The translations under genes were made by a program, and so were the position numbers. From Alkalidesulfovibrio alkalitolerans DSM 16529 (GTDB taxonomy: Bacteria > Desulfobacterota > Desulfovibrionia > Desulfovibrionales > Desulfovibrionaceae): a stretch of DNA of 64,000 nucleotides. Numbering within the stretch: the stretch's first letter is position 1; every line of letters begins with the position of its first letter. The notes under the pieces were generated by a model, which saw only the letters and a program-made list of their open reading frames with translations, made no database searches and was not told where the DNA came from. This document shows, piece by piece, positions 1-31,291 of this stretch. The stretch is taken from NCBI RefSeq assembly GCF_000422245.1, contig NZ_ATHI01000022.1:1-64000 (forward strand). Reading direction: 5' to 3'.

Positions 1-320
1 GGGTGACGGGTTTTCTTTTTCTCCTTGTTTATAAAGGGTTTGCGCCCGTTTCACATCTTTCCAAAGCACCTCTTCGCACCATCGATTCTCCCCATCCTCC
101 CGCCTTTTTTTCTCTGTTTGGCCCCTGATTCTCTGTTTTCTCCGGACCAAGTCCGAAGCTCGTCCGGAAAGCTACATCCTTGATTGATATGGGTTTGCGG
201 CTGGTTGCCGTTTTGGGCGGTTGTCTTAGGTCATCGCTCGATGCCGCAACCGGACGTTTTTTTCGAAATCACCCGCCTCGGCCATGAAAAGAAGCGTGGT
301 CAACTCCGGTTTCCTGCCCC

Positions 321-378: not shown

Positions 379-801
379 TCAGTCGGTGGCGAAGCCGAAC
401 TGGCGGCGCTGCTCGGCCCAGTCCTCGGGGAAGGTCTGGGTCAGCTTGGCCAGCGAGAGCCCGTTGGGTTCCTCGCCGTTGATCAGGGCTTCGACGATGT
501 CGGGGGCCAGGGTCGTCAGCTTGAGGATGCGGGCCACATACGAGCCATCGACGTCGAGGGTACGGGCAAGCTCGCTGATGGACTTGATCTGGCCGGATTC
601 GAGGATGTCGGCCCAGGAAAAGGCCCTTGCCAGAGCCTGGAGGACGGCGGACTGTACCGGCTCCTGCGCCCCGGGGATATCTCCATCCAGGGCCTGGGGC
701 GCGATGACCGTCTTGCGGCCGCGCATGCGCCGGATCAGCATCGGGATGTGGATCTGCAGGTTGCCGTTGTCGGCAACGGTAATGGTCGGCTTCATTTTCA
801 T
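379..801 (-). CDS. Small HTH companion of the serine recombinase
   Basis: 140-aa protein, last gene of the minus-strand integration module. The ATG at 801 overlaps the recombinase stop codon (ATGA) and is preceded by GGAGG, so this start is preferred to the in-frame ATG at 831. The middle (SISELARTLDVDGSYVARILKL) reads as a helix-turn-helix of ParB/KorB style, with a C-terminal part rich in Leu and Trp. Proteins like this commonly sit directly after a large serine recombinase together with a DUF2924 gene (family knowledge). A role as DNA-binding accessory or directionality factor is inference; no catalytic motif is visible. Confidence 0.75.
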   Translation of the reverse strand: MKMKPTITVADNGNLQIHIPMLIRRMRGRKTVIAPQALDGDIPGAQEPVQSAVLQALARAFSWADILESGQIKSISELARTLDVDGSYVARILKLTTLAPDIVEALINGEEPNGLSLAKLTQTFPEDWAEQRRQFGFATD

Positions 802-2384
802 CGGCTTGGCCTCCGTTCGGTGACTTCGCATGCCAGACCGGCCAGCTCGGCGATGAGCGTTGTCAGCCCGTTGGTGCGCAGCTCCATGTCGATCCCGGTC
901 TCGCGGATCTCGACCTTATCCACCAGGAGGCGGATGAGCCGGTTTCGCTCCACCGGGAAAAGGTCTTCCCAGAAGCCTTCGACATTCTGGAAGGCCTCCG
1001 AGACGTCCTGTTCCGTGATGCTGTTCCCCCGGTAGGCTCTGCATCGCTCGCTCACGTGCGTCAGTTGTTTCGAGAGCTCGACCGCCTGGCGGTTGACGGT
1101 CGTCAGCATCTCTGCCTTGCCCGGCTGATCGCTGCCGGGCTTCATCAGTTCGAGTGCCTGCTCCCGCGCCTGCGACAGCTCCATCTCGAGTTGGGCTTTC
1201 TGCTTGAACAGCCGCTCCCGCTCCACCTGCTCGATGTCCCGGGCCGCGAAGTAGGTTTTGGCCACCAGCGTCGGTGTGCGGAACACCGCGCTCAACTGCT
1301 CGACCACGGCCTGCTCGATGTCCCCGGCGGGAATCCGTTTGAGCGGACACCGGCTCACGGTCCGCTTGCTGTCCTTCTGGCAGATGTAATAGGTGTAGTG
1401 GCGGCCGTTCTTGCGGGCGTAGGTCGGTCCCATCGCGCATCCGCAGTGGCCGCAGCGGATGACGCCTTTCAGTGGGGCGACCATTTTGGTTCTGGCCATC
1501 GAAACCTTGACCGGTTTGTTGTCCTCCAGGATGGCCTGAACCTTGTCCCAGGTCGCCCGGTCGATGATCCCTTCGTGCTCGCCGGGGTAGCTGCGATCCT
1601 TGTGGGCGATCTCGCCGATATAGATCCGGTTGTTGAGCAGCCGGTAGATATGGGCGGTGTTCCATTCGGAGCCCTCGCGCACTTTGCCTTTCTTGGTGGT
1701 CCAGGCCTTGGTGCGGTACCCCTGTTCGTTCAATTCCTGGCCCAGCTTCTTGGCCGAGCCGATCTGGATGAATCGGCGGAAGATGTACTGCACCGTCCTG
1801 GCTTCATCGGGATTGACCAGCAGCTTCTTGTTCTCCCGGTCGACGTCGTATCCGAGGATGGGTACGCCGCCGCAGTATTTCCCCCGGCGCTTGGCTGCCG
1901 CCACCTTGTCCCGGATACGTTCGGCTATGACCTCCCGCTCGTACTGGGCGAAGGTGATCAGGATGCCGAGAAACATTCGGCCGGTAGGGTCGGTGGTGCT
2001 GAAGTGCTGGGTGACCGAGACGAAGCTGACGCCCTTCTCGTTGAAGAGGTCGATCATCTTCATGAAGTCCAGCAGCGAGCGGGACAGCCGGTCGACCTTG
2101 TAGACCACGATCACATCAATCTTCCCGGCGTCGATGTCCGCCAGCAGTCGGCGCAGCCCCGGGCGCTCCATGTTCCCACCCGAGAAACCGCCGTCATCGT
2201 AGCGATCCGGCAGAGCCGTCCAGCCACGCATCCTCTGGGCTTCGATATAGTGTTCCGCCGACTCCCGTTGCGCATCCAACGAGTTGAATTCCTGTTCGAG
2301 CCCTTCCTCGTGGCTCTTGCGGGTGTAGATGGCACAGCGCAGGGTCTTGTTCTTGCCCGGCGCGACATTGCTGTTATCAAGCAT
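798..2384 (-). CDS. Large serine recombinase (site-specific integrase)
   Basis: 528 aa. The N-terminal resolvase domain (about residues 15-165) has the nucleophile in YTRKS (Ser24), the SLDAQ segment and the DRLSRS motif. A recombinase domain follows, then a zinc ribbon (CGHC near residue 311, second Cys pair about 30 residues on), then a long coiled coil at about 360-430. This is the architecture of large serine integrases, which join attP and attB through a Ser-DNA intermediate. The start overlaps the DUF2924 stop and the end overlaps the small HTH gene, so the three genes form an operon. It is the most plausible integrase of the element. The tyrosine recombinase at 20 kb looks secondary. 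Confidence 0.93.
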   Translation of the reverse strand: MLDNSNVAPGKNKTLRCAIYTRKSHEEGLEQEFNSLDAQRESAEHYIEAQRMRGWTALPDRYDDGGFSGGNMERPGLRRLLADIDAGKIDVIVVYKVDRLSRSLLDFMKMIDLFNEKGVSFVSVTQHFSTTDPTGRMFLGILITFAQYEREVIAERIRDKVAAAKRRGKYCGGVPILGYDVDRENKKLLVNPDEARTVQYIFRRFIQIGSAKKLGQELNEQGYRTKAWTTKKGKVREGSEWNTAHIYRLLNNRIYIGEIAHKDRSYPGEHEGIIDRATWDKVQAILEDNKPVKVSMARTKMVAPLKGVIRCGHCGCAMGPTYARKNGRHYTYYICQKDSKRTVSRCPLKRIPAGDIEQAVVEQLSAVFRTPTLVAKTYFAARDIEQVERERLFKQKAQLEMELSQAREQALELMKPGSDQPGKAEMLTTVNRQAVELSKQLTHVSERCRAYRGNSITEQDVSEAFQNVEGFWEDLFPVERNRLIRLLVDKVEIRETGIDMELRTNGLTTLIAELAGLACEVTERRPSR

Positions 2385-7218: not shown

Positions 7219-7803
7219 ATGGTTTCACAAAATTCTTACGACGGCATCGACAAGTATGCCGCCGACCTCATTCGGCACAAAGCACGTCAACTCGTAGGCA
7301 AGGCCGGATTCACCGAGGACGACAGACCCGACCTCGAACAGGAACTGATGATCGATCTGCTGCAGCGGATGCGGCATTTCAATCCCGCCAAGGCCAAGAA
7401 GACCACCTTCATGGCCCGGATCGTCGAACGTCACATCTCCACCATCCTGGAGGCCCGGTTCGCCCAATGCCGGGACTGGCGGCTCTGCCAAACCTCACTC
7501 AACGAACCCCTCGACAACGGCGAAGGCGACACCACCGAGCGGATCGAGTTCCTGGACAGCGAAGGTTCTCTGGGAGGCGGCACCCGCGAGACAAGGGAGC
7601 GCCTCGCCCATGAGATCCGCATGGATCTCGGCCAGGCCATCGCCTCGCTGCCGGAAGAGCTCCGGGATCTGTGCGTGCGCCTGCACGACAGCACCATGGC
7701 CGAAGTCGCCCGGGAGATGGGCATTCCCAGAACCACCCTCTACGACCGGCTGAGCAAGCTCCGGGACGCGTTCCGCGAGGCCGGGCTCGAGGACTACCTG
7801 TGA
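7219..7803 (+). CDS. Phage-encoded sigma-70-family RNA polymerase sigma factor
   Basis: 194 aa, about the length of ECF-type factors. Residues 20-85 (DDRPDLEQELMIDLLQRMRHF ... TTFMARIVERHISTIL) match region 2, which binds the polymerase core and the -10 element. Residues 135-190 (GQAIASLPEELRDLCVRL ... STMAEVAREMGIPRTTLYDRLSKLRDAF) match region 4, a helix-turn-helix that reads the -35 element. There is no long region 1 or 3. GGAGG is 5 nt before the ATG. Directly downstream is the first of nine identical-spacing promoter-like boxes, so this is the best candidate for the factor that switches the polymerase to the phage's own operons. It could alternatively be a sigma-like regulator without promoter specificity. 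Confidence 0.85.
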   Translation: MVSQNSYDGIDKYAADLIRHKARQLVGKAGFTEDDRPDLEQELMIDLLQRMRHFNPAKAKKTTFMARIVERHISTILEARFAQCRDWRLCQTSLNEPLDNGEGDTTERIEFLDSEGSLGGGTRETRERLAHEIRMDLGQAIASLPEELRDLCVRLHDSTMAEVAREMGIPRTTLYDRLSKLRDAFREAGLEDYL

Positions 7804-18923: not shown

Positions 18924-19424
18924 GTGGCACTGAACAAACCGGACAAAGAGACGCTGGATCGTTGGCACCGCAACGAGGGCAAGACCGAACCGCCCCGGCG
19001 CGGGCCTGGTGCGCCCGAGGGCAACCAGAACCGGCTGCGTCACGGCATCTTCGCCGACCGCTGCCTGACGCCGGAAGAGAAGGTCATGTTCGACGCGATC
19101 ATCGACCGCCTCAACCAGGACTTCGAGTTCAACAAGTCCAGCGACTTCCTGCAGGTGGAGTTGGTGGGCGTCTACTCGGTGAAGCTGGTCCGCGCCCAGA
19201 TCGAGGGGAACACCGACGCCGCCGAAAAACTCGACCGGATGATCCGCTGTCATATGAAGGATCTCAAGACCACCAAGATCGCCCGTGAGGGTGATGAGCC
19301 GAAAGGCCCGCAGACCTCTCCGGCGGAATGGGCGGCGGCGCTGCTCGAGAAGGTGGCCGAGGCCGCCAACGCCCCGGCAACGAAAACCTCCGGCCGCAAG
19401 AAACGCGGAAAGAATTGCGGATAA
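18924..19424 (+). CDS. Probable terminase small subunit
   Basis: 166 aa. The segment RRGPGAPEGNQNRLRHGIFADR (about residues 27-48) is the G-A-P-x-G-N-x-N-x-x-x-H-G motif typical of small terminase subunits and related DNA-binding packaging proteins. A long helical region (DRLNQDFEFNKSSDFLQVELVGVY) follows. The C-terminus is Lys/Arg-rich. No clear ribosome site is visible before the ATG, so the start is provisional. The large subunit lies 2.7 kb downstream, separated by the tyrosine-recombinase insertion. Confidence 0.65.
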   Translation: MALNKPDKETLDRWHRNEGKTEPPRRGPGAPEGNQNRLRHGIFADRCLTPEEKVMFDAIIDRLNQDFEFNKSSDFLQVELVGVYSVKLVRAQIEGNTDAAEKLDRMIRCHMKDLKTTKIAREGDEPKGPQTSPAEWAAALLEKVAEAANAPATKTSGRKKRGKNCG

Positions 19425-19500
19425 CACCATGGAGGGCCTTTCCGATGACTCCGGCACACGGCGACTTGCGGCAGACAGCTTCACCAGGAATTGCGGATAA
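19412..19500 (+). repeat. 13-bp direct repeat at the end of the small terminase gene
   Basis: GAATTGCGGATAA occurs at 19412-19424, covering the last codons and stop of the small terminase gene, and again at 19488-19500, 76 bp apart. It could be a short target duplication or recombination scar at the left edge of the recombinase insertion; a chance repeat is possible. Confidence 0.45.
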
Positions 19501-19584
19501 GACGTGTTCCTTGCACTTTCGGAATCGGCATTCTCCAGCGGCCGATCATCATTTCCACTCCTCCATTTCTTCCTGCAGCTCTCG

Positions 19585-19778
19585 ATATCCGCTTGGCATG
19601 TGTGCGCATAAGCAGAGCCGCATAAGCCAAGCAGATATTGGCATGTCGAGGCCCAGGCAGAACCGGCCAAGCCCCGCAAACAGCCATTCCATCGGCAGCG
19701 GCCCTCGCACATGCCAAGCAGATATTGCCATGTGTGTTTTGCGCCAGGAGCGCACAAGCCAAGCAGTTATAGCCATGT
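19585..19778. repeat. Family of 26-bp repeats beside the tyrosine-recombinase module
   Basis: Three direct copies of CA(C/T)A(A/T)GCCAAGCAG(A/T)TAT-N2-(G/C)CATGT lie at 19621-19646, 19708-19733 and 19753-19778. A shorter inverted copy is at 19585-19602. Each unit is a near-palindrome (ACATGCCAA - 7 nt - TTGGCATGT type). Size and symmetry fit tyrosine-recombinase core sites, or binding sites for a regulator. The rest of 19425-19979 holds no credible gene. Confidence 0.6.
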
Positions 19779-19931
19779 GCGGCCGACAGACAGAAAAGGA
19801 GAAATTCCGGTCAATCGATATTTCCCGCTCCGCCCGGGAGGCTGAGAACCATCGTCATGATCATTCATCATCGGCTGATGTGTTCTTTTGCGGGCACTGT
19901 CATTCACTGTCTTCGACACTGTCTCGCCCAA

Positions 19932-19959
19932 CGAAAACAGGAGCAGCCGAGGCCGCTCC
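19932..19959 (-). terminator. Probable terminator of the tyrosine-recombinase module
   Basis: On the minus strand GGAGCGGCC and GGCTGCTCC form a stem with one G-U wobble and a very short loop, followed by TGTTTTCG. It lies just after the stop codon at 19980. Confidence 0.5.
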
Positions 19960-19979
19960 CATCATCGGGGCCGAAAGGA

Positions 19980-20894
19980 TCAGAGACGTTCGAGGGCTTC
20001 CTCGAGCTGGCCGTCCACGAGGTGGGTGTAGATCTGGGTGGTGGATACGTCCCGATGCCCCAAGGCCCGCTGCACCACGAGCAGGTCGTTGGTCGCGCCG
20101 TAGAGGTGGGTGGCGAAGGTATGCCGCAGCCCGTGCGGCGTCAGTTCCTTTTCGATCCCGGCTTTCCGCAGCCAGTGAGCGAGCCGGTTGGCAATCTGCC
20201 GCTGGCAGAGTCTGCCGTCCCGGTTCGACAGGAACAGAGCTTCCATTTCGGGACGGCCATGTCGACGGCGCTCGGCCAGGTAACGGCGCAGCAATGTGCG
20301 GAGGTCGGTCTTGATGAACTTGACCTGCGGCACATTCCCCTTGGCCCGCACCCGCAGATGCTTGGCGTCGAGGTCGATGTCATCCATGTCGAGCGCGGCC
20401 AGCTCGCCAAGCCTGATCCCGGTGCCCAGCAGCACCTCGATCATGGCGCGGTCGCGCAGCGCGGAGAAGTCGGTCCGTCCCTTGAGCTCCTTGAGGAGCC
20501 GTTTCTTTTCGGCGGCAGTCAGGAAGACCGGCAGCTTTCTCGGCAACCGATGCATGCGGATGGACCGGGCCGGATTGTCATTGACCACGCCCGCCTCGGC
20601 GGCCCAGGCGAAAAAGGCCCGCACCGCAGCCTTCATCCGATGGAGCGAAGCCGCCGAGCGTTGGCCTCGCTCACTCTCGATGACCGCCCCGGCGGAGAAC
20701 ACCTGGTCGAGGAGCCTGGCCGTGATCGCCCGGCAGACGATGCCCGGGGCCAGCTCCCCGGCCACACGGGCCACCAGGGCGAGGTCCCGGCGGTATGCGG
20801 CTATGGTCGCTGGGGAGCGTCCTTCGGCCGACAGGCGGGCACAGAACGCCTCTGTCGCGGCCGTCAGGTCGAGGTCAGCCGTTCGGTTGCTCAT
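19980..20894 (-). CDS. Tyrosine recombinase (XerC/D-like)
   Basis: 304 aa, complete. A SAM-like core-binding domain spans about residues 10-110. The catalytic domain shows Arg in GTGIRLGEL, His-x-x-Arg in HGLRHTFA, His in LGHRD and the nucleophile Tyr in TTQIYTHL, with a Lys in the beta-hairpin (RAKGNVPQVKFIK). The start overlaps the upstream SAM-like gene by 20 nt. It lies in a minus-strand module between the small and large terminase genes, against local transcription, so it looks inserted. The 26-bp repeats downstream are plausible substrates. Confidence 0.93.
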   Translation of the reverse strand: MSNRTADLDLTAATEAFCARLSAEGRSPATIAAYRRDLALVARVAGELAPGIVCRAITARLLDQVFSAGAVIESERGQRSAASLHRMKAAVRAFFAWAAEAGVVNDNPARSIRMHRLPRKLPVFLTAAEKKRLLKELKGRTDFSALRDRAMIEVLLGTGIRLGELAALDMDDIDLDAKHLRVRAKGNVPQVKFIKTDLRTLLRRYLAERRRHGRPEMEALFLSNRDGRLCQRQIANRLAHWLRKAGIEKELTPHGLRHTFATHLYGATNDLLVVQRALGHRDVSTTQIYTHLVDGQLEEALERL

Positions 20895-21249
20895 CGCTGG
20901 TCTCCTTCACCCGGCTGTGGCCCATGGGTGTGCTCTTGGGCAGCGGCAGCTCCTCGATACGCCCAGACTCTCTGGCCCAGACCATCATCATGCGGAACAC
21001 CCGAACGGTCTTGGCGACGGTGCGCTCGGCCCGCTCCTTGCCGTCGGGGAGTTTGAGCAGCAGATCGGATTTGTAGAATTTGCCGACCTGGGGAAGCCGG
21101 ATCTCGGCGAGCTGGCGATCCGCGCCGAAGAAGGACTCAACCACGTCGAGGTCCTTCCGGTAGGTGTAGAGGGTCCGCTCTTTCTTTCCGGATTCCCGCA
21201 GGTGGCCGATGAAAGCCTCGGCGGCTTGATGCACGGTGCATTCGGTCAT
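20875..21249 (-). CDS. Stand-alone SAM-like (integrase N-terminal) domain protein
   Basis: 124 aa. VHQAAEAFIGHLRESGKKERTLYTYRKDLDVVESFFG is the core-binding fold of tyrosine recombinases, but the protein ends where a catalytic domain would begin. No frameshift remnant of a catalytic domain follows, because the next gene starts a new complete recombinase. GGAG lies 9-10 nt before the ATG. It may be an accessory subunit that shapes the synapse, or the relic of a duplicated recombinase. Confidence 0.75.
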   Translation of the reverse strand: MTECTVHQAAEAFIGHLRESGKKERTLYTYRKDLDVVESFFGADRQLAEIRLPQVGKFYKSDLLLKLPDGKERAERTVAKTVRVFRMMMVWARESGRIEELPLPKSTPMGHSRVKETSDEQPNG

Positions 21250-21890: not shown

Positions 21891-22165
21891 AAGAGATCCT
21901 TCAGGAAAACAGCGATGCCGTTCGCCAGGCCGGTGAGGCCCTGGTTGAAATCGGCACCGAACTGGCGGCGGGACGGATCGAGAACGCCCTCGGCCGTCTG
22001 GAAGCGGCTCAGCAGCAGTACCGGGCCTGGGCGGAGTTGGACCAGGCCATCATCGACATTCAGGAGGCTGTCCACGACCGGAAGAACACCCTGGCCGTGC
22101 AGCAGATTCTGACGGAACTGGTGGGCACCATCCTCGGCAGCTCCTTGAGGACGGGAATGCACTGA
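21887..22165 (+). CDS. Small helical hypothetical protein
   Basis: 92 aa, coupled to the lipoprotein (ATGA) and to the large terminase (TGATG). It is almost wholly helical (EILQENSDAVRQAGEALVEIGTELAAGRIENALGRLEAAQQQYRAW), with a more hydrophobic end. No recognised domain. The tight coupling to the terminase suggests a packaging or lysis accessory. Confidence 0.65.
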   Translation: MKEILQENSDAVRQAGEALVEIGTELAAGRIENALGRLEAAQQQYRAWAELDQAIIDIQEAVHDRKNTLAVQQILTELVGTILGSSLRTGMH

Positions 22166-23688
22166 TGGCGGTAACCGACAAGGAGCGCAAACTCGCGGCG
22201 ACCCTGAGCGATCCCGTGTTGTGGGGACAAGCCTACCTCTACAACCGGGATGGCTCGGGCCGCGACTACTGGCCGCACCAGGTGGAGGACCTGCGCTGCC
22301 CGGCCAAGAACATCATCCACCTCGACGGCCGGGACGTGGGCAAGTCCATCGTGCTCTCGACCGACGCGCTCCATTACGCCTTCACCACCCGAGGCGGCCA
22401 GGGCCTCATCGCGGCTCCGCACCAGGGGCACCTCGATACCATCATCGAGGAGATCGAGTTCCAGCTCGACACCAACCCGGATCTGATGAACAGCATCGCT
22501 CTGACCAAGTACGGCAAGCCCAAGATCCACCGCAAACCCTATTTCCGGCTGGAGTTCACCAACGGTTCGGTGCTCTATTTCCGCCCGGCCGGGGCCTATG
22601 GTGACGCCTTTCGGTCCCTGCATGTTGGCCGCGTCTGGGTCGATGAAGGAGCCTGGCTGACCGAACGGGCCTGGAAGGCGCTGCGCCAGTGCCTCAAAGC
22701 CGGGGGGACGCTACGCATCTACTCCACGCCCAACGGCCTGCGCGACACCACCTATTACCGGCTCACCTCGTCGGACCAGTTCCATGTGTTCCGCTGGCCG
22801 TCCTGGCTCAACCCTCTTTGGACCGAGGATCGCGAGGCCGAACTGCTGGAGTTCTACGGCGGCCGCGACAGTTCCGGCTGGCAGCACGAGGTGGCCGGTG
22901 AACACGGCAAGCCTTCCTATGGGGCCTTCAATGTCGAGCAGTTCAACCTCTGTCGGCAGGATCTGCTGGAGTATCAGAAGATCGTCATCACCGATTCCGA
23001 GCTACGCGATTGCGATACCGAGGAAGCGGCCCACGACCGGCTGGAGATGCTGCTCAACCTCACTCCCCGCAGCGGGCAGTTCTGGGTCGGCGGCGACCTG
23101 GGCTACACCAACGACCCCACCGAGATCGTCGTATTTCAGGAGATGGAGGTCGGCGAGCGGACGCTGCTGAAGATGATCCTGCGCGTGCATCTTGAACACG
23201 TTTCCTATCCGCACATCGCTCAGATCATTGCGCTGCTGGAGCGTTACTACACCCCGGCGGGCATCGGCGTGGATAACGGCGGCAACGGTCTGGCGGTGGT
23301 TCAGGAATTGCTCACTCTGGACAAATACAAAGGGCTGGAACTGGAAGGCAGGCTCAAGGGATACGACTTCGGCGGCATGACCCGGCTGGCGGTGCGGGAC
23401 GGCAAGGAAATCAAGAAGCGGACCAAGGAGCTGATGACCAGCCTCATCAACGGAGCCCTGCAGCGTAAGCAGCTCATTTTCCCCTCGGACGACCTGGAGG
23501 TGGAGGACCAGTTCACCACCCACACTTACACACTGCGGGACGGCAAGATCATCTATTCCAAGGGCAACGACCACATCATCGACGCGGTGCGCTGCGCCAT
23601 GCTGATCCGGGAGGAAGGCAACCTCGACCCGGTCGGCGAAGAGGTGGTCTCGCTCAAGCCGGTCCTCACCAATCCGGTCCTCATCTGA
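22165..23688 (+). CDS. terL: Terminase large subunit
   Basis: 507 aa. The ATPase domain has a Walker A-like DGRDVGKSIVLS near residue 54 and Walker B VWVDEGAW near 158. The C-terminal nuclease shows GGDLGYTNDP near 310, GVDNGGNGLAVVQEL near 369 and a late acidic NDHIIDAVRCAML. It pumps DNA into the prohead and cuts concatemers. The last 529 bp (from 23160) are repeated at 29175-29703. Confidence 0.92.
   Translation: MAVTDKERKLAATLSDPVLWGQAYLYNRDGSGRDYWPHQVEDLRCPAKNIIHLDGRDVGKSIVLSTDALHYAFTTRGGQGLIAAPHQGHLDTIIEEIEFQLDTNPDLMNSIALTKYGKPKIHRKPYFRLEFTNGSVLYFRPAGAYGDAFRSLHVGRVWVDEGAWLTERAWKALRQCLKAGGTLRIYSTPNGLRDTTYYRLTSSDQFHVFRWPSWLNPLWTEDREAELLEFYGGRDSSGWQHEVAGEHGKPSYGAFNVEQFNLCRQDLLEYQKIVITDSELRDCDTEEAAHDRLEMLLNLTPRSGQFWVGGDLGYTNDPTEIVVFQEMEVGERTLLKMILRVHLEHVSYPHIAQIIALLERYYTPAGIGVDNGGNGLAVVQELLTLDKYKGLELEGRLKGYDFGGMTRLAVRDGKEIKKRTKELMTSLINGALQRKQLIFPSDDLEVEDQFTTHTYTLRDGKIIYSKGNDHIIDAVRCAMLIREEGNLDPVGEEVVSLKPVLTNPVLI
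23160..23688 (+). repeat. Direct duplication, copy A (terminase 3' end)
   Basis: 529 bp, repeated at 29175-29703 with an offset of 6015 bp. I count 16 mismatches by eye. Nine fall in the first 180 bp and are all synonymous; about 310 bp are identical; seven fall in the last 40 bp. The two copies flank the ABC-transporter cargo. The short gap 23689-23873 beyond it holds an 11-bp direct repeat (ACCCCATCGGG at 23775 and 23847). Confidence 0.95.
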
Positions 23689-23873
23689 CCGCACCACCAT
23701 AACTTGCTGTATCTCAATAGTTTTAACCAAGTTAGGTAGACTCAATCATCCTCTTGGCAGATAAAAGGGGTATAACCCCATCGGGAGTTCGAATATAGAA
23801 AGCCAGTTTGAGAGGGCCGGCTGGCGGTGACAATCATGCCAGCCGGACCCCATCGGGTTAAAGAGTCAAATGG

Positions 23874-24872
23874 TTACTTCGATAAAGCCCCTTTTTTGGC
23901 TTTTTCGGCGATCTTTTTCGTCAGATTTTCGAGACTGGCGGATTCAATTAGCGGCTTGGCCTTGTAGCTGGCCAGCCTGAAGTACTCCGGTCTGTTGGAG
24001 ACCTTGAGAGTGTACTCTTCCTTATCCTTGGCCTTGCCCAGCTGGTAGGTCAGTTTCGCCCCTCCTTTTTGAGTCAGGGTGATCGTCAGAACGGGATCGT
24101 TCAGGCCATATTCCTCTTTTGCCTCTTGCCCCAGGACACGCTCGAAACGCAGCTCCGCCAACAGTCCCGCGAGTTTGTCCGCGGCTTCGACTTTAAGCGC
24201 TTTGCCTTCATCGATGCCCTCGGCCTTCCATGTTGGTTGCGGACTCGATTCATCAGTCGCTTTGTCCTGAACAGTTTCGGCTGAGCTTCGTTGGATACGC
24301 AAGCCACCCACATCGATGGCGGCAATGTCCGATTTCAATAAGGTTAAGATGGATTTATCTTCCCAATCCTCTGCTTTCATCGGGACATCGTAGGCGGCCA
24401 TCTTGACGGCATGGATGGCATCACTCGCTTCATTGCGGGCGTGGATCAGCCGCATGCCGGGCGAACTGCCCAGGTAGAGCCGGGCGAGCGTCTCATCGCC
24501 GCTGGACAAGGTGATACGGCGTTCAAATACCTCGTCACTGACCTTGAAGCGTTCACGGGCGCTACGGCTGGTGGCCACCGGCGCTCCGGAACGCAGGGCT
24601 TTGAGCCGGTCGAAAAGTTGCTTCACTTTGTCGCTGTTGACTGGGAAGTCGGCCACATCCGGCAGCACCCAAGTGCCACCTTCCTTCTCAAGCGTTACTT
24701 TCGCGTCGTCCGGTCCCTCCAGGGTGATGCGATTGACTTTTTCACCATCGAACTCCAGCAGAGAAACGGGTTCGTTGCCGGCGGAAATGCTCCGACCGGT
24801 CAGGCCGACCCCTGCCGCCAGCAGCAATTGTGCAGCGAGCAGAACGGCCAGTATCTTGACTGTTTTTTGCAT
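23874..24872 (-). CDS. DUF4340 protein of the Gld-type ABC system
   Basis: 332 aa. An N-terminal membrane anchor (KTVKILAVLLAAQLLLAAGVGL) is followed by repeated DUF4340-type units (VNRITLEGPDDAKVTLEKEGGTWVLPDVADFPVNSDKVKQLFDRL). DUF4340 proteins are usually the last gene of GldG-type ABC operons and sit in the periplasm beside the transporter. GGAGG lies 8 nt before the ATG. It is encoded against phage transcription as part of the inserted cargo. Confidence 0.88.
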   Translation of the reverse strand: MQKTVKILAVLLAAQLLLAAGVGLTGRSISAGNEPVSLLEFDGEKVNRITLEGPDDAKVTLEKEGGTWVLPDVADFPVNSDKVKQLFDRLKALRSGAPVATSRSARERFKVSDEVFERRITLSSGDETLARLYLGSSPGMRLIHARNEASDAIHAVKMAAYDVPMKAEDWEDKSILTLLKSDIAAIDVGGLRIQRSSAETVQDKATDESSPQPTWKAEGIDEGKALKVEAADKLAGLLAELRFERVLGQEAKEEYGLNDPVLTITLTQKGGAKLTYQLGKAKDKEEYTLKVSNRPEYFRLASYKAKPLIESASLENLTKKIAEKAKKGALSK

Positions 24873-24875
24873 GGT

Positions 24876-25988
24876 TTATACCTCCGCCAACACGGTGTCG
24901 TAATGCTGCTTGTCAGCGGCCGCTACCTTGCGGCGCCAGCCCCACACGGCCAGTAGTCCGAGGACGGCCAGGCCGTAGTTGACCCACTCCCAAATCCGTT
25001 GTTCGCCATCGGGCATGGGGTCGAGGGTGCGCGCCAGTTGCGTTCGTCCCCGCAAGGCCAACAATCCGCGGTCTTCCAGCGACCAGTCGATGGCGTTTTG
25101 CATGAAGGCCAGCGGTTTCGTATACAGGGTATTGAGACCCTGTGAGGCGAGGTCGATGGCGGCGTCAGAAGCGAAGGTGTTGCTCGACACCAGGATCAGC
25201 CGCGCCGATTCCGGCGAGCGCTCGATCACACCCGTGATGCGCTGCTCGGCCTCTTTCTCCTCTTTTTTATCCGCACTTTCACCGTCTGCCTCGCTGTCAT
25301 TGGATGCGTCGTCGCTCTCTTCAACCATGGCCAGGGGCGACTCCTTGTCTTTGTAGAACGAATCGAAGCGCCCTTCGATGGCCACGGCCAGGAGCTGTGA
25401 TTTGCGTTTGCCGCTGACGCTAAAGCCCGTATCCGGGTGGGCGCGGTAATCAGGCACCAGGTTCAGGCTGTCCGAGGTCCAGCTGTTCTCGGAGCTATGC
25501 AGCAGCTCGATCACCTTGCGCTCCTGATTTTTCTCTGTATCCACCTGAATCGGCGAGGCCCAATTCAGGGTGAGCTGACCCAGCGAGGCGGTGATGGGGT
25601 TATCCGGGTTCAGGCTGTCGCCGCGCAAATCCGGGAAGTGGGGATAGGGCAGCATGCGGATCTCCCGCAGGGCCAGGCCGCCGATGTAGCGCTCGGTCGG
25701 AACCGGCAGCGCCGCATTTTGCGGATCGAGCACCATGGTCTCGTGGATGCTGATGCCGTGATGTTCTAACCATTCTTTCAACCCGGAGTCCTGCTTGCTG
25801 GCGTTCAGGCTGCCACTGGTCTGCACGTCGAAGGGCGAGGTGGCGAGCACCACGCTGCCGCCCTGCATCAGGAACTGGTCGATGGCGAAGCGCTGATTTT
25901 CGTCCAGTTCACGCGGCGCCAGCACCAGCAGCAGGTCGGCATCCTCTGGCGCCTGACCGCTCTTCAGATCGCTTTCCTTGATACGCAC
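24876..25988 (-). CDS. GldG-type auxiliary protein, C-terminal part after a frameshift
   Basis: 370 aa in the frame starting at 25988. It holds the end of the GldG-like auxiliary domain (QAPEDADLLLVLAPRELDENQRFAIDQFLMQGGSVVLATSPFDVQTSG), an acidic low-complexity stretch (about residues 218-245) and a C-terminal membrane helix (WVNYGLAVLGLLAVWGW). There is no ribosome site for a separate start. The upstream protein reaches the same point in a frame one base off, so this is most simply the second half of one 960-aa protein. Confidence 0.75.
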   Translation of the reverse strand: MRIKESDLKSGQAPEDADLLLVLAPRELDENQRFAIDQFLMQGGSVVLATSPFDVQTSGSLNASKQDSGLKEWLEHHGISIHETMVLDPQNAALPVPTERYIGGLALREIRMLPYPHFPDLRGDSLNPDNPITASLGQLTLNWASPIQVDTEKNQERKVIELLHSSENSWTSDSLNLVPDYRAHPDTGFSVSGKRKSQLLAVAIEGRFDSFYKDKESPLAMVEESDDASNDSEADGESADKKEEKEAEQRITGVIERSPESARLILVSSNTFASDAAIDLASQGLNTLYTKPLAFMQNAIDWSLEDRGLLALRGRTQLARTLDPMPDGEQRIWEWVNYGLAVLGLLAVWGWRRKVAAADKQHYDTVLAEV

Positions 25989-27772
25989 GTTTCACCCAGC
26001 ACGTCTTCCAGAGCATCATAGCGATGCCCGCCCGGGCCGAAGGCCTGGGGCTTGACCAGGGCGACGGTCTTTAGCGCACCGGGGGTCAGGCGTTGCAGCG
26101 CTGCGTTCAGCGAGCGCTCCAGGGAGCCCTTGTCCAGGGTCTTCGGTAACGGCACCTGCAAGGCTTGGCCGTCGCCCTCCAGCACCATGTAGAACCAGAA
26201 GGGCTTGGGGTCGAACAGGCTGGCGATCTGTGGCCCGAAACCGTACTTCTGCTGGAGCTCGGCGGCGAGCTTGCCGCCGTCGGCATCCGGATCGGCGAAC
26301 TGCACGGTCAGCTTGTCGCCCGCCTGTTTTTTCAACTCGTCGAGCAAGTCCTTGAGATCGCCGCGCAGCTCGCGCAGGGTCTCCGGCAACTGCTCGTCGG
26401 GTGACATATAGCCCTTGAACGCCACCGGGTGTTGCAACGCCTCAAAGGGGTTGCCGCCGGCCCGGTAGCTGCCCGCCACCTTGCGGATGGCCCGGGTAAT
26501 GGCGTACTCTGGATTCTTCAGCGCCACGTCCAGATCCCGTTCGCCGCGCGCTTTCACCTCGATGAGCTCCCGGAATCCTAGGGTTTCATACTGGTCGCCA
26601 TAGGCGATCAACAGGTCGAAGTAGGAGCTGACCACGGCCGTCTGATAACGGTCCGCCGTCTGGAAGGGGACCGGCTTGATGCCATAGCGCGAGGCGGCCT
26701 CTTCTTCGGCCTCACGGTCGCGGGTGGGATCGACGAAATCGACCCGGATGCGGTCACCGCCGGCCACGGCATACTCGTCCAGCAGGTCCTTGATCCGAGG
26801 CACCAGCGGCGCCAGCAGGGGGTGAGTCTTGGCGGAGAAGTAGCCGCGGATCAGCAGGGGCTCCCGCAGGGCCGCGAGCTGGCTCTCGGTGGCCTCGGAG
26901 AGGGAGTACTGCTGGTCTGCGGTGATGTCCGCGCGGGCCCAGCCGATCGGGTTGAGCCAGAGATTGGCGGCTATGAAATTGGCTGCCGCCAGTCCCACGG
27001 CCCAGCCCCACAGCCGGTGTCTGGAGCTGATGGGATTGCCCGCCCAGCGCAGCCGCTCGAGTGAGAACAGATTGAGGGTCAGAAAGACGCCGACGATAGA
27101 GAGATAGTAGTAGAGGTCGCGCAGATCGAGCACGCCGCGGGTAATCGACTCGAAGCGGGTACCGGTGCCGAGCAAGGCGAGCAGACCACCGATCTCATGG
27201 CCGAAAAGAGTGGTCAGGGTGTTTGATCCGATCAGGTAGAAGAGCCCGCTGACCACGGCGGTCAGAATCAGGGCGACGATAGGGTTGTCGGTGCGCCCAC
27301 TCGTATAGAGCCCGATGGCCACGTAGGCCGCGGCCAGAAACAGGGTGGCGATGTAGCCGCCGACCACCGGGCCCCAGTCAAGCGGCCCGAGCAGGGAGAC
27401 CGTGACCGGCAGAGGCAACGTCAGCGCCAGTGCCAGGGCAACCAAGCCCAGGGCCGCAGTGAACTTGCCCAGGATCAGCTCCAGTGGTTTGACCGGTGCG
27501 GTCAGCAGGCTTTCTAGGGTGCCGCTGCGGCGCTCCTCGGACCAGGCGCGCATGGTCAGAGCCGCCACCAGGAAGATCAGCAGTATCGGCATCCACTGAA
27601 ACAGCGGTCGCACATCGGCGATATTGCGGGCGAAGAAGGTCTCCACCCAGAAAAAGACGAACAGCGTCACCGCGAGGAAACCACCGAGGAAGAGATAGGC
27701 GGCCGGTGTGGCGAAGAAGCCACGAAACTCCTTGCGCGCGATACTCGGTATGCTGGAAAAGCGCTCAGCCAT
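25964..27772 (-). CDS. ABC-2 type permease fused to GldG-like domain, truncated by a frameshift
   Basis: 602 aa. Residues 1-250 are an ABC-2 permease with about six membrane helices (AAYLFLGGFLAVTLFVFF, WMPILLIFLVAALTM and others). From about 290 a GldG-like periplasmic domain begins (DQQYSLSEATESQLAALREPLLIRGYFS). Known homologues continue past FGPGGHRYDALEDVLGE into the sequence of the next reading frame. Here a run of three A (plus-strand TTT at 25990-25992) appears where four would keep the frame. Either a real inactivating deletion or a sequencing error. It overlaps the ATPase gene by 8 nt. Confidence 0.85.
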   Translation of the reverse strand: MAERFSSIPSIARKEFRGFFATPAAYLFLGGFLAVTLFVFFWVETFFARNIADVRPLFQWMPILLIFLVAALTMRAWSEERRSGTLESLLTAPVKPLELILGKFTAALGLVALALALTLPLPVTVSLLGPLDWGPVVGGYIATLFLAAAYVAIGLYTSGRTDNPIVALILTAVVSGLFYLIGSNTLTTLFGHEIGGLLALLGTGTRFESITRGVLDLRDLYYYLSIVGVFLTLNLFSLERLRWAGNPISSRHRLWGWAVGLAAANFIAANLWLNPIGWARADITADQQYSLSEATESQLAALREPLLIRGYFSAKTHPLLAPLVPRIKDLLDEYAVAGGDRIRVDFVDPTRDREAEEEAASRYGIKPVPFQTADRYQTAVVSSYFDLLIAYGDQYETLGFRELIEVKARGERDLDVALKNPEYAITRAIRKVAGSYRAGGNPFEALQHPVAFKGYMSPDEQLPETLRELRGDLKDLLDELKKQAGDKLTVQFADPDADGGKLAAELQQKYGFGPQIASLFDPKPFWFYMVLEGDGQALQVPLPKTLDKGSLERSLNAALQRLTPGALKTVALVKPQAFGPGGHRYDALEDVLGETCVSRKAI

Positions 27773-28679
27773 GGCTCACCTCCTCGTTGACCCGGGCGAA
27801 TACCGTTTCCAGATCGTGGCGCTCCGGTGTGATTTCATGCAGAGCAAGTCCCGCATCCATGACAGCTTGAGCCACCCGGGGCGCGCTGCCCGGTTGCGCC
27901 TCCACCCGATAGCGCCTGCGGCCTGCGGCCGCATCCAGCTCGGCGACCTCGGCGACCCCCTCCACTGATTTGAGAGTGGTCTGTGCATCACCGTCGACGG
28001 CCACCAGCAGGGCGTCATCGCGTTGCAGCTCATCGATCCTGGAATCAACTACCAGGCGACCGGCGCGCAGGATAAGCACCCGCTCGCATACCGCCTGGAC
28101 CTCTTGCAGGATGTGGGTGGATACGATGACCGTGGCCGTTTGCGCCAGTTCGCGGATCAGGCCGCGCATCTGGCGGATTTGGGTGGGATCGAGCCCGTTG
28201 GTTGGCTCGTCGAGGATGACGATGTCGGGCTCGTGCAGGATGGCCTGAGCCACACCGACTCGCTGGCGGTAGCCCCGAGACAGGGTCTGAATCGTTGCAG
28301 TGGCCTTCTCCTTCAGTGCCGTGCGGCGGATTGCCCTGACGATAGCACCCTTACGCTGGCCCTCCGCTATGCCGTGCAGGCACGCCTGGTAATCGAGATA
28401 ATCGATGACGGTCATCTCCGGCCAGACCGGACAGTTCTCCGGCAGGTAGCCGATTCTTGACTGGATGGCCGTGGTATCCTGGCCGATACGCCGGCCGTCG
28501 ATGTCGATGGTCCCGGCGGTGGGTTCGAGAAAACCGGTCAGCATTTTCATGATGGTGGTTTTGCCGGCGCCATTGTGACCGAGCAGGCCGACGATTTCAC
28601 CGCGGCCAATACGGAAATTGACATCGTCCACGGCAGTGAAATCGCCATAACAGCGCGTCAGGTTTTCGACCTGAATCAT
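27765..28679 (-). CDS. ABC transporter ATP-binding protein (GldA-like)
   Basis: 304 aa from the ATG at 28679, which has AAGGAG 8 nt upstream. Walker A is GHNGAGKTT, the signature is LSRGYRQRVGVAQAIL, and Walker B is IVILDEPTNGLDP, followed by an H-loop (VSTHIL). The C-terminal regulatory tail is that of ABC-2 type exporters. First gene of the cargo operon with the permease/GldG and DUF4340 genes. In many proteobacteria this trio is chromosomal; its substrate there is unclear. Finding it in a phage late region is unusual. Confidence 0.92.
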   Translation of the reverse strand: MIQVENLTRCYGDFTAVDDVNFRIGRGEIVGLLGHNGAGKTTIMKMLTGFLEPTAGTIDIDGRRIGQDTTAIQSRIGYLPENCPVWPEMTVIDYLDYQACLHGIAEGQRKGAIVRAIRRTALKEKATATIQTLSRGYRQRVGVAQAILHEPDIVILDEPTNGLDPTQIRQMRGLIRELAQTATVIVSTHILQEVQAVCERVLILRAGRLVVDSRIDELQRDDALLVAVDGDAQTTLKSVEGVAEVAELDAAAGRRRYRVEAQPGSAPRVAQAVMDAGLALHEITPERHDLETVFARVNEEVSHG

Positions 28680-29014
28680 GGAAATTTCTCCTTGTTGATA
28701 ACGGATTAGAAAATTGAATGTGTCAGCATCGTCCCGGTGAATGCAATGCGTTCCGATCCGGCCAAGCAAGTGCGACAGCATCTTTGTTTAAAAGCAGGGA
28801 GCTATGGGGGGGGGCGGGCGGTTATACGTCTGGTGGAATTTTCTTTTTCTGCACAGATACATGGTTAATGAGGTTTTTTACATTGGTGTATTTTGGTTAT
28901 AATCCACTTTAATGACAATGTATGATTCGAAAGAATCTTTCCTATCTGAATCTCATAAAATAAAAATACAGAAATGCCTTGTCAACCCATTGTCCCCTGG
29001 GGTCTCCCCATTTT
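28680..29014. other. Gene-free AT-rich segment upstream of the ABC operon
   Basis: No credible gene. A G-run (28807-28817) is followed by the most AT-rich stretch of the region (28840-28975), with TATAAT-like hexamers (near 28898) and a small GATTC-GAAA-GAATC hairpin near 28924. Composition differs sharply from the phage genes on either side, which supports a foreign origin for this block. Confidence 0.5.
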
Positions 29015-29174
29015 TCAGAGACCGATGGGCAGAATTGGTAACCTGAGTTGGCTTTGGAGCCCAGGCGGTTTTCCGCTGCGCAATCGCTCGTAGAAGACGC
29101 TCCGGGCTTCGGCAAAAAGCCTCTGCCATCCCTTGAGCAGGCTGTAGAGTAGAAAACGTGGCCGCTTTCTGTCA
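29015..29174 (-). pseudogene. Truncated ORF fragment at the cargo/duplication junction
   Basis: On the minus strand an open frame of about 52 codons (RFLLYSLLKGWQRLFAEARS, then VFYERLRSGKPPGLQSQ) ends at a TGA (29015-29017). At its 5' end it stops making sense exactly where the terminase duplication begins (29175). It reads like the C-terminal remnant of a mobile-element or chromosomal gene cut by the rearrangement. I cannot name the family. Confidence 0.35.
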
Positions 29175-29703
29175 GACGCTGCTGAAGATGATCCTGCGCG
29201 TGCATCTTGAACACGTTTCCTATCCGCACATCGCCCAGATCATCGCGCTGCTGGAGCGTTACTATACCCCGGCTGGCATCGGCGTGGACAACGGCGGGAA
29301 CGGTCTGGCGGTGGTTCAGGAATTGCTCACCCTGGACAAGTACAAAGGGCTGGAGCTGGAAGGCAGGCTCAAGGGATACGACTTCGGCGGCATGACCCGG
29401 CTGGCGGTGCGGGACGGCAAGGAAATCAAGAAGCGGACCAAGGAGCTGATGACCAGCCTCATCAACGGAGCCCTGCAGCGTAAGCAGCTCATTTTCCCCT
29501 CGGACGACCTGGAGGTGGAGGACCAGTTCACCACCCACACTTACACACTGCGGGACGGCAAGATCATCTATTCCAAGGGCAACGACCACATCATCGACGC
29601 GGTGCGCTGCGCCATGCTGATCCGGGAGGAAGGCAACCTCGACCCGGTCGGCGAAGAGGTGGTCTCACTCAAGCCGGTGCTCACCAACCCGATTTTTATC
29701 TGA
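29175..29703 (+). pseudogene. Terminase large subunit 3' fragment (duplication copy B)
   Basis: Contains only the terminase nuclease C-terminus (from TLLKMILRVHLEHVSYPHI to the stop), without ATPase domain or a convincing start; a GTG at 29158 precedes it but lacks a ribosome site. It is 97 percent identical to 23160-23688. The coding differences are Val-Leu to Ile-Phe near the end, and all early differences are silent, so its source was a working terminase. It cannot work as a terminase on its own. Confidence 0.9.
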
Positions 29704-29787
29704 ACCAGACAAATCGTTACCAGTTTTGTGGAAGTGGCAACAATAGGTCTGATGCCCGAGGGCCAGGGAATGGCCGTGGCTTGGATG

Positions 29788-31098
29788 TCAGGCGCTTTCC
29801 GGCATGTTCAGCAGAAACCGCCAGGCGGGCACCACGTCAATTTTTCCGGAATCTACCTGTATCTGCTCTTCCTCGTTACGCGTCACGATAATGCCATGCG
29901 ACAGTTTCAGTTCGGTCATGGCTTCGGCAAGCGCGGTGGTTTCCCGCTTGCGGGTTTGCTGGTCGGCCATCGATTCACAAACCTGAACAAGCATGCGGGA
30001 CGGGCCTTGTCGTCCGGCGATGAAATCAACCTCCCGGCCCGCCTTGGTCTTGTAGTAAAAGATATCCGGCGTGACCCGACGCAGCGCGGTGAACACCAGG
30101 TTCTCCAGAAGATGGCCCGAGTTGACCAGAATGCCGGAGCTGATCGACGTCACCAGCGCGTGATCGACGCAGTAAATCTTCTTGGGGTTGGTGTTGGCCC
30201 GGGCCAGCGAGGCGTCAAAGATGCGCACCGTGAACAGAACGTAGGCATCCTCGAACCATTCGAGATAATCGGAGACGGCGGGTTTCGGCGCTTTGTGCCC
30301 CAGGGATTTCAGGTAGCCGGTCAGGTTGTTGATGGAATAGAGGGAACCCGTATTGTCCACCAGCCAATGCGCCAGATCCGTGACCGCCTTGGGGTGAGAG
30401 ATATCATGGCGTTCAACAAGGTCCCGGAACAGCATTGCGTTGAAATACTCTTGGTGGGTCTTGATTCGCAGCATACGGTTAAGGCCTGCAACCTCGGGGA
30501 AGCCACCGGTTTCCCAGTACTCCTCGAATGCCTTCTGGACAGTCAGACGTTTTTTGGTCGAGAGTGGACCGTCGCTCTCGATCCCCTTGTAGTCGAGAAA
30601 CTCCCGGAATGAAAACGGGAACATTTCCCAGGAGAGTGCCCGGCCGCGCATCTGGGTCGCTATCTCTCGTGAGAGCATCTGAGCCGACGACCCGGTAATG
30701 TACACCTCGCACTTTTCCATGCGCATCAAGCGGTCAACGAAGGGCTCCCAGCCAGGTACGACCTGGATCTCATCGAAAAAGCAATAAACCTTCTCGGCAT
30801 TCTTTTTTTCCGGACAGAGAGAAAAGTAGGCTTCCAGAATCACACCCAGATTGTCGTGTTGCAGACTATGCAGACGATCATCGAAAAAGTTCAGATAGAG
30901 GATGTTCTGACGGGCAACGCCAGTGTCCTGCAGCTTCTTCATAAGCTGGAACATGAAAGTCGATTTACCGCTGCGGCGCACACCGATGCAAACCGTGGCT
31001 TTTCCCGGCACTGGCGAAACAGCAACCCGCCTGGGCACACCCGTCGGAAGGTCAATCTCCTGAAAATCGAGGATTATTTCTTTAAGCATGTCAATCAT
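29788..31098 (-). CDS. AAA_14/DUF4143-family ATPase
   Basis: 436 aa. Walker A is GVRRSGKST near residue 39, Walker B YCFFDEIQ near 106 and sensor motif VYITGSSAQML. A helical middle (FPFSFREFLDYKG) and the C-terminal DUF4143 domain with a nuclease-like GREVDFI segment follow. These are widespread stand-alone ATPases of unknown role, often in accessory DNA. GGAGG lies 8 nt before the ATG at 31098. It runs against the phage late genes and is probably a second cargo gene. Confidence 0.9.
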   Translation of the reverse strand: MIDMLKEIILDFQEIDLPTGVPRRVAVSPVPGKATVCIGVRRSGKSTFMFQLMKKLQDTGVARQNILYLNFFDDRLHSLQHDNLGVILEAYFSLCPEKKNAEKVYCFFDEIQVVPGWEPFVDRLMRMEKCEVYITGSSAQMLSREIATQMRGRALSWEMFPFSFREFLDYKGIESDGPLSTKKRLTVQKAFEEYWETGGFPEVAGLNRMLRIKTHQEYFNAMLFRDLVERHDISHPKAVTDLAHWLVDNTGSLYSINNLTGYLKSLGHKAPKPAVSDYLEWFEDAYVLFTVRIFDASLARANTNPKKIYCVDHALVTSISSGILVNSGHLLENLVFTALRRVTPDIFYYKTKAGREVDFIAGRQGPSRMLVQVCESMADQQTRKRETTALAEAMTELKLSHGIIVTRNEEEQIQVDSGKIDVVPAWRFLLNMPESA

Positions 31099-31223
31099 CG
31101 CGAAAACCTCCGGCTATCAATTTTTCCGGTCAATATAACAACCGGAAATAATTATTGCCAGTTTAGGCTTGAAATGGCAAGGAAAATTTCTGGTTTCGAC
31201 CTCGGCCGCCTCAATGCAGTCTG

Positions 31224-31267
31224 ATGCAAAACCTCTTTACTTCTTCTCAAATGAAGAGGTTTTGCAT
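31224..31267. repeat. 14-bp perfect inverted repeat (hairpin) before promoter box 4
   Basis: ATGCAAAACCTCTT (31224-31237) and AAGAGGTTTTGCAT (31254-31267) with a 16-nt loop. It lies between the divergent ATPase gene and promoter box 4. It could be a terminator insulating the late operon or the end of an inserted element; there is no T-tract right after the stem. Confidence 0.6.
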
Positions 31268-31291
31268 ATTGACCACCCGCCAAACTCATCC

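What the first reader, a model, noticed from the sequence alone, without database searches (positions are those of the whole stretch)
19585..19778. 26-bp near-palindromic repeats next to the recombinase
Three direct units and one inverted partial unit have arms about 9 bp around a 7-bp centre, as in tyrosine-recombinase core sites. They lie at the downstream end of the recombinase module. In both strands the repeats look protein-coding by chance (repeated short peptide motifs), which may mislead gene finders.
Basis: partly seen in the sequence, partly recalled or inferred. Interest (0 to 1): 0.5.

Follow-up and report, generated by a model that had tools for sequence, protein, structure and literature searches.

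The report
Repeat array beside phage Xer-type recombinase
The repeats are real and occur in a group of closely related phages of environmental bacteria, but they are probably a helper array next to the true recombination site of a phage enzyme resembling the one bacteria use to separate joined chromosomes.

Summary
Observation confirmed: three direct 29-bp near-palindromes (11-bp arms, 7-bp centre) and one inverted partial unit on a 45-bp register, found only here in the 3.2-Mb genome. They lie in a temperate phage between a terS-like gene and an intact XerC/D-like recombinase. All 22 non-redundant loci (window included) with a recombinase at least 87% identical carry 1-4 units; the number changes by whole units. 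A serine integrase, present in all 7 genomes given, is the likely integrase. Beside recombinases 38-81% identical the units are missing (46 regions). What persists at 54% identity and above is a dif-like dyad with a 6-bp centre plus a same-sequence half-site 75-76 bp away, here 19490-19517 and 19414-19424; in the one clear mosaic locus it follows the recombinase, not the terminase. A conserved partner has only the core-binding fold. Best reading: a phage Xer module for circularising or monomerising phage DNA, with the repeats as a lineage-specific accessory array. No activity was tested, and the window's own core dyad is weak.

The parts
19575..19603 (-). inverted partial unit A of the repeat array (one arm plus centre match; the other arm is degenerate)
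   Evidence: the repeat finder I2; 45 bp before the first direct unit in 21 of 22 loci, missing in L059; coordinates
19620..19648 (+). direct unit B; left flank like the first unit (S1) and right flank like the second unit (S2) of full arrays, so a hybrid left by loss of one 45-bp step
19665..19690 (+). degenerate unit-like stretch (GCCAAGC...GCCAT, 10-bp centre) between B and C
   Evidence: sequence; that it explains the 87-bp step as two steps is inference
19707..19735 (+). direct unit C
19752..19780 (+). direct unit D
19414..19424 (+). accessory half-site ATTGCGGATAA, ending on the terS stop codon
   Evidence: second motif 75 or 76 bp further on in 47 of 47 non-redundant loci where two motifs were seen
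19490..19517 (+). candidate core recombination site (site I): ATTGCGGATAA / GACGTG / TTCCTTGCACT, 11-6-11; right arm weak in this phage (6 of 11)
   Evidence: near-perfect dyads in relatives
19799..19826 (+). second palindrome P (GAGAAATTCCGGTCAATCGATATTTCCC); by eye also in several array-less families but not in L156-L159; role unknown
19980..20894 (-). XerC/D-like tyrosine recombinase, 304 aa, with R161 K185 H254 R257 H280 Y289
   Evidence: Pfam Phage_integrase 9e-43; XerD 1a0p E 2.4e-36; these six residues invariant in 22 of 22 aligned
20875..21249 (-). 124-aa protein with only the core-binding (SAM-like) domain of tyrosine recombinases
   Evidence: PHROG integrase 4.6e-7; AF2 mean pLDDT 87.5; best folds are recombinase N-terminal domains; 23 sequences, 14 invariant columns
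18924..19424 (+). terminase small subunit-like gene
   Evidence: PHROG terS 1e-4
22165..23688 (+). terminase large subunit
   Evidence: Pfam Terminase_6C/6N, PHROG terL 1e-29
798..2384 (-). large serine integrase of the prophage
   Evidence: 98-99% identical copy in 6 of 6 other genomes given (those)

Best explanation
The repeats belong to a phage-encoded Xer-type site-specific recombination module in the packaging region, in the order terS > [half-site, core site, repeats] < recombinase < core-binding-only protein, then terL. Inferred: the recombinase crosses over at the core site (19490-19517) between two copies of the phage genome or its two redundant ends, so circularising incoming DNA or resolving multimers, as Cre-lox does for P1. 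The core-binding-only protein and the half-site make this selective. The repeats are double-stranded protein-binding units that assist or tether this complex, and they gain and lose whole units by unequal exchange or slippage at the locus. Integration itself is done by the separate serine integrase.
For: Recombinase within 2 kb upstream of terL and antiparallel to it in 49 of the 50 terL loci (of 79 fetched, not de-replicated) with more than 2.4 kb upstream; core-binding-only ORF between them in 42 of those 49; its fold matches recombinase N-terminal domains. Two GATAA-type motifs are 75 or 76 bp apart in 47 of 55 non-redundant loci, with no spacing imposed; of the other 8, three have an endonuclease-like insertion there and five hold no terS. 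With the arm anchored, a 6-bp centre is best or tied in 18 of 19 loci, mean arm match 7.95 of 11 against 3.84 or less for each of 14 other centre lengths (in 3 of the 19 I could choose between two pairs). The gap is 66 in L230, L232, L247 and 65 in L228, L229, one helical turn shorter. Near-perfect dyads: L230 and L235 11/11, L218, L225, L061, L209 and L157 10/11, each reached by 0 of 200 shuffles. Mosaic locus L240: terS 54% and terL 77% identical to the window but 49% and 68% to L228; recombinase 40% to the window but 54% to L228; its arms are L228's. Serine integrase at the prophage edge where inspected. In the repeat units one inner pair (6-24) is A.A in 31 of 33 distinct units and no two-sided change occurs in the inner seven pairs, so protein-binding DNA rather than a hairpin.
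Against: No cleavage, binding or recombination was tested. In the window the core site's right arm is weak (6 of 11), and symmetry alone is not significant there: 132 of 200 shuffles reach the region's best 6-bp-centre dyad. Seven of the 18 regions tested by shuffling, besides the window, are reached by 11 or more of 200. The site is identified in the window by homology. L035 does not show the 6-bp optimum. Packaging type (pac or cos) is unknown, so the need for circularisation is inferred. The case against a terminase site rests mainly on one mosaic locus with a modest difference in terS identity. Seven recombinase loci had no detectable core-binding-only ORF, and L238 has terL without the recombinase. 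L240 showed no half-site by the pattern used. Two outer pairs of the repeat unit (1 and 4) each have one unit with a two-sided change. Nothing shows what binds the repeats.
Confidence: 0.5

Rival explanations
1. One reading: the repeat units are themselves the crossover sites of the recombinase, and their unit-number changes are its products.
For: Unit geometry 11-7-11 with inverted arms and an asymmetric centre, all direct units co-oriented. Unit number changes in register in several lineages; L114 looks like L130 with one unit gone and the junction inside positions 5-15 of the unit. Strict co-occurrence with recombinases 87% or more identical.
Against: No unit in 46 regions beside recombinases 38-81% identical, most of which keep the gene order. 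The conserved site has a 6-bp centre and other arms. Neighbouring units are only 45 bp apart, short for intramolecular synapsis (recalled for Cre/Flp). Replication slippage gives the same products.
Confidence: 0.2
2. Half-site and core are the packaging start (cos or pac) bound by the small terminase, and the repeats are further terminase-binding units; the recombinase is only a neighbour.
For: They start at the stop codon of the terS-like gene and lie in the packaging cluster; direct same-sequence motifs about 76 bp apart resemble cosB-type arrays (recalled). An endonuclease-like ORF is inserted at the site in L019, L031 and L059, as known near cos sites (recalled).
Against: In mosaic L240 the arms follow the recombinase, not terS or terL. 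L230 and L232, with terS only 38% but recombinase 54-55% identical, keep a window-type arm. 11-6-11 is the published Xer geometry (passages of PMC5357621).
Confidence: 0.15
3. The units act as RNA or single-stranded hairpins (bidirectional terminator, mRNA end, or attC-like fold) between two convergent genes.
For: Two of three units of the different array in the 70-72% group fold strongly (z -6.0 and -4.1; the third 0.2). One window unit has z -2.8. The location is between convergent genes. Single two-sided changes at pairs 1 and 4.
Against: The other two window units fold weakly (z -1.1, -0.3) and the whole array as DNA has z -1.7. No terminator-like site in 19300-20050. Uncompensated changes at pairs 7 and 8, and A.A at pair 6 in 31 of 33 units. 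Two Rfam matches below the gathering scores, none above.
Confidence: 0.07
4. The array is a tandem duplication kept by slippage, without a function.
For: Unit number is labile (1 to 4) and single-unit phages exist.
Against: 12 of 29 positions are invariant in 33 distinct units (units were picked by similarity to a consensus, which helps this number). At least one unit is kept in 22 of 22 loci and the inverted unit in 21 of 22. A differently built array occurs in the 70-72% group.
Confidence: 0.1

Closest known systems
Xer/dif single-recombinase modules (XerS/difSL, XerH/difH)
   Same: XerC/D-like enzyme with the full catalytic set; core of inverted arms of about 11 bp around a 6-bp centre; gene next to its site, as for xerS-difSL (passages of PMC5357621).
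   Different: Phage-borne in a packaging cluster; a same-sequence half-site 65-76 bp away; a core-binding-only partner; the repeat array. Binding and FtsK dependence untested.
P1 Cre-loxP
   Same: Phage tyrosine recombinase encoded near its likely site in a temperate phage; Cre keeps P1 monomeric (abstract and passages of PMC2409434). Nearness of lox to P1's packaging start is recalled.
   Different: The enzyme resembles XerC/D, and Cre is not among the 15 solved-structure matches; these phages carry a serine integrase; circularisation is inferred only.
Phage tyrosine recombinases that are not integrases (phiCbK gp143; Xer genes of plasmid prophages)
   Same: Authors proposed resolution of intermediates or multimers for phiCbK gp143 (passages of PMC3556154); Xer genes are listed in plasmid prophages (passages of PMC8026635).
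   Different: No site, half-site or core-binding-only partner appears in the passages seen.
Lambda-type attP and integron attC arrays
   Same: Tyrosine recombinase next to an array of short inverted-arm sites.
   Different: No prophage edge at this locus in the genomes inspected; no genes between units; the partner's fold resembles core-binding domains, not an arm-binding domain.

Membership tests
Xer/dif-type module | XerC/D-like sequence and full catalytic set R-K-H-R-H-Y | tested here: met
   XerC model E 3.9e-67, but 226.7 bits is below its equivalog cut-off of 335, so not XerC itself; six residues invariant in 22 of 22
Xer/dif-type module | 28-bp core: two inverted arms of about 11 bp and a 6-bp centre | tested here: met
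   Family level: 6-bp centre best or tied in 18 of 19 anchored loci. In the window alone the right arm matches 6 of 11 and is not significant
Xer/dif-type module | enzyme recombines the site and resolves dimers | not testable with these tools
   needs an assay
   present at 87% identity or more (22 of 22), not found in 46 regions at 38-81%
   in-register unit losses fit exchange or slippage alike
P1 Cre-lox-like circularisation | terminally redundant (headful) genome with the site near the packaging start | not testable with these tools
   no virion-end data; only nearness to terS is shown
Lambda-type integration module | prophage edge at the recombinase's site | tested here: not met
   recombinase lies about 20 kb inside; the edge carries a serine integrase and abuts a tmRNA (two genomes) or tRNA-Arg (one) 3' end in the three genomes inspected
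Integron | gene cassettes between attC sites | tested here: not met
   intervals of 16 and 58 bp between units; no sign of coding

The most novel reading that the evidence does not exclude
These phages carry a three-part Xer system: a catalytic XerC/D-like subunit, a catalytic-domain-less subunit consisting only of the DNA clamp, and a composite site of a dif-like core plus a half-site held at helically phased distance (75-76 or 65-66 bp). The dead subunit would occupy one arm or the half-site and so decide when, and between which copies, exchange happens, next to where packaging starts. The 45-bp repeat array would be an extra scaffold evolved in one lineage.
Probability: 0.35. Interest if true: 0.65.

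Novelty: new variant of a known kind. Interest (0 to 1): 0.45.

Why it matters
If right, a large set of phages (terL relatives down to 39% identity; by record title, hosts from several Desulfo- genera to Ectothiorhodospira and Kiritimatiellales) carries a Xer-type recombination module locked to the packaging genes and separate from integration, with a clamp-only partner that offers a natural test of how a tyrosine recombinase is made directional. The 28-bp sites with 6-bp centres could also serve as orthogonal recombination tools. It corrects the obvious guess that the eye-catching repeats are the crossover sites.

Tried and rejected
Considered and set aside: DNA inversion between the inverted unit A and a direct unit (A has the same orientation in all 21 loci that keep it). 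Host dif origin of the array (the dif-like pattern gave one 3-mismatch hit elsewhere in the own genome and 2 in the reversed control). REP-like genomic repeats (only 3 hits in the genome, all here). Protein-coding repeat. RNA element. Circular contig: the contig's last 143 bp are 93% identical to its first 143 bp, with no exact overlap, so a second att copy is more likely than a phage-plasmid.

Led nowhere or done badly: the class-wide site pattern was badly chosen and missed known copies (the window's own among them), so its tally (9 of 297) is not used as a prevalence; L118, L120, L121 and L125 from it had no recombinase in 3 kb. My first anchored scan missed most doublets because of a faulty expression and was redone. 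In one search the spacing was limited to 74-77 bp, so the spacing claim rests on the unrestricted listing. Literature: five searches; the rows listed named no such terS-recombinase-clamp module, and only passages of four papers were seen. Subscription journals are mostly not held, so novelty in print is not established.

Rows dropped: from the 22-locus array count, L046 (terS and intergenic region deleted), L060 (81% identical, other neighbour genes) and L116 (contig ends inside the array; it shows 2 units); identical regions were merged. L252-L256 (4, 4, 4, 4 and 3 units at 22 or more of 29) were found later and are not in the 22. In one search, L230 and L247 lacked a 74-77 bp doublet and are reported with gap 66. 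One search kept the best 80 of 89 terL relatives.

Full report
What is there. The window is the start of a 95.6-kb contig. Its phage part is colinear with prophages in three other genomes, mostly at 94-97% DNA identity with some variable stretches. The repeats lie between a terS-like gene (18924-19424, +) and a 304-aa tyrosine recombinase (19980-20894, -). Behind the recombinase come a 124-aa ORF (20875-21249, -) and terL (22165-23688, +). Three direct units and one inverted partial unit are confirmed; shuffles and the genome search make chance very unlikely.

Not the integrase. A 528-aa large serine integrase lies near the left edge (798-2384), and 98-99% identical copies are in all six other genomes given, those that one search found to carry the recombinase. 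In the three genomes inspected the prophage edge abuts the CCACCA end of a tmRNA gene (two) or a tRNA-Arg gene (one). The tyrosine recombinase sits about 20 kb inside.

The array in relatives. Of 31 viral loci with related recombinases, 9 have direct units at up to 3 mismatches, exactly those with recombinases of 88-92% identity, and 22 have none. Among genome loci with a recombinase 95% or more identical over at least 200 residues only L046, where terS and the intergenic DNA are deleted, lacks units; two short contig-end fragments (L068, L079) have none either. In 22 non-redundant loci, window included, 72 units (33 distinct) sit on a 45-bp register with one 87-bp step; counts are 4 units in 15, 3 in the window, 2 in three, 1 in three. 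The left flank of the first unit and the right flank of the last unit stay nearly the same, so shorter arrays look like hybrids: the window's first unit has the left side of S1 and the right side of S2; L009, L109 and L130 have S1/S3; L008, L055 and L114 have S1/S4. L114 is close to L130 with one unit gone, the junction lying inside the unit. The distance from the terS motif to the recombinase shrinks by 45, 87 and 45 bp. Both exchange at the units and replication slippage predict this. A different array, with steps of about 43 and 47 bp counted by eye, occurs in the 70-72% group, where L027 is 45 bp shorter. In 46 regions beside recombinases 38-81% identical the best score against the 29-base unit is 18, against 26-29 in the close group.

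The site that persists. Recombinases of 54-72% identity keep the gene order but not these units. What stays is two direct motifs ending in GATAA; the second is the left arm of a dyad with a 6-bp centre. Without any limit on spacing, two such motifs were seen in 47 of 55 non-redundant loci, 75 or 76 bp apart in all 47; of the other eight, L019, L031 and L059 have an endonuclease-like insertion there (the 76-bp pair is visible in L198 and L186, the same contigs, and by eye in L059) and five hold no terS. Of 21 representative loci given to, 19 had the doublet within 74-77 bp; in 18 of these 19 a 6-bp centre was the best or tied-best of 15 centre lengths (exception L035). The loci are related, so this is perhaps ten independent lineages (my estimate). 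L230, L232 and L247 have the pair at 66 bp, L228 and L229 at 65 bp, about one helical turn less. Dyads of 10-11 of 11 occur in L230, L235, L218, L225, L061, L209 and L157 (0 of 200 shuffles each), L247 (1 of 200), L229 (3) and L240 (9); others are weaker and the window's is not significant by itself. The published dif of E. coli and of B. subtilis is 11-6-11, and xerS lies next to its site (passages of PMC5357621).

Whose site. If it were the terminase's it should follow terS. Locus L240 is a mosaic: terS is 54% identical to the window and 49% to L228, terL 77% and 68%, recombinase 40% and 54%. Its arms, GTCGCATTT/AAATGCGAC around 6 bp, are those of L228 and L229. Conversely L230 and L232, with terS 38% but recombinase 54-55% identical to the window, keep the window-type arm (ATTGCGGAGAA). 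This favours the recombinase but rests on few loci.

The clamp-only partner. The 124-aa protein aligns over 23 loci with 14 invariant positions, is predicted with mean pLDDT 87.5, and its best solved-structure matches are N-terminal or core-binding domains of tyrosine recombinases, lambda Int and XerD among them (best E 7e-3, probability 1.00; no match at E 0.001 or less). By sequence alone it has no significant solved relative. It is found between recombinase and terL in 42 of 49 loci.

What the repeats do. Arms of the repeat units (GCAYAWGCCAA) differ from the core arm (ATTGCGGATAA), and the centre is 7 not 6 bp. Changes at pairs 7 and 8 are uncompensated and pair 6 is A.A in 31 of 33 distinct units, though one unit each has a two-sided change at pairs 1 and 4; on balance they behave like a protein-binding double strand, not a hairpin. 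I take them as a lineage-specific accessory array; what binds them is unknown. That they are core sites themselves stays possible (0.2).

Likely working. By analogy with Cre-lox of P1, which keeps the plasmid prophage monomeric (PMC2409434), and with the resolution role proposed for phiCbK gp143 (PMC3556154), I propose that the module circularises or monomerises the phage genome at a site beside the packaging genes. Shown: parts, conservation, geometry. Inferred: binding, exchange, purpose.

Noticed in passing
7827, 17729, 18822, 31313, 38391, 43786, 50734, 52227, 59202 (+): Nine copies of CCGGTAAGTAAC/G, all on the + strand (largest number in 100 shuffles 6); 6 of 9 have TCCGACRC about 20 bp upstream. 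The frame ending in the motif is mostly short, so it is not a shared protein end. Candidate promoter motif, perhaps for the phage's sigma-like factor at 7219-7803.
   Followed up: partly
23694-31286: Relative to colinear prophages in three genomes the window has an extra 7.6 kb right after terL, holding ABC-transporter/Gld-like ORFs (named by eye) and a partial terL copy (29158-29703; 300 bp at 97%).
   Followed up: partly
contig C22 left end (window 1-143) and 95430-95572: Prophage edges at CCACCA ends of tmRNA (two genomes) or tRNA-Arg (one); a 93% identical copy of the left-end sequence at the far contig end and a doubled copy in G015 suggest tandem elements at such ends.
   Followed up: partly
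L019, L031, L059 (at site I): An endonuclease-like ORF (MTES_1575/DUF2726/DUF559 matches) is inserted at or just after the centre of site I in two lineages, perhaps a homing endonuclease aimed at this site; by eye L059 and L060 also have Doc-like genes beside the recombinase.
   Followed up: partly
L048-L057 versus window: By record titles the recombinase is 95-97% identical across several Desulfo- genera and Ectothiorhodospira, and 69-72% in Kiritimatiellales/Pontiellaceae: an unusually wide host spread.
   Followed up: no
L045/L123 and L054: A 75-bp GC-rich palindromic insertion at the edge of palindrome P in two phages, probably a small mobile palindromic element.
   Followed up: no
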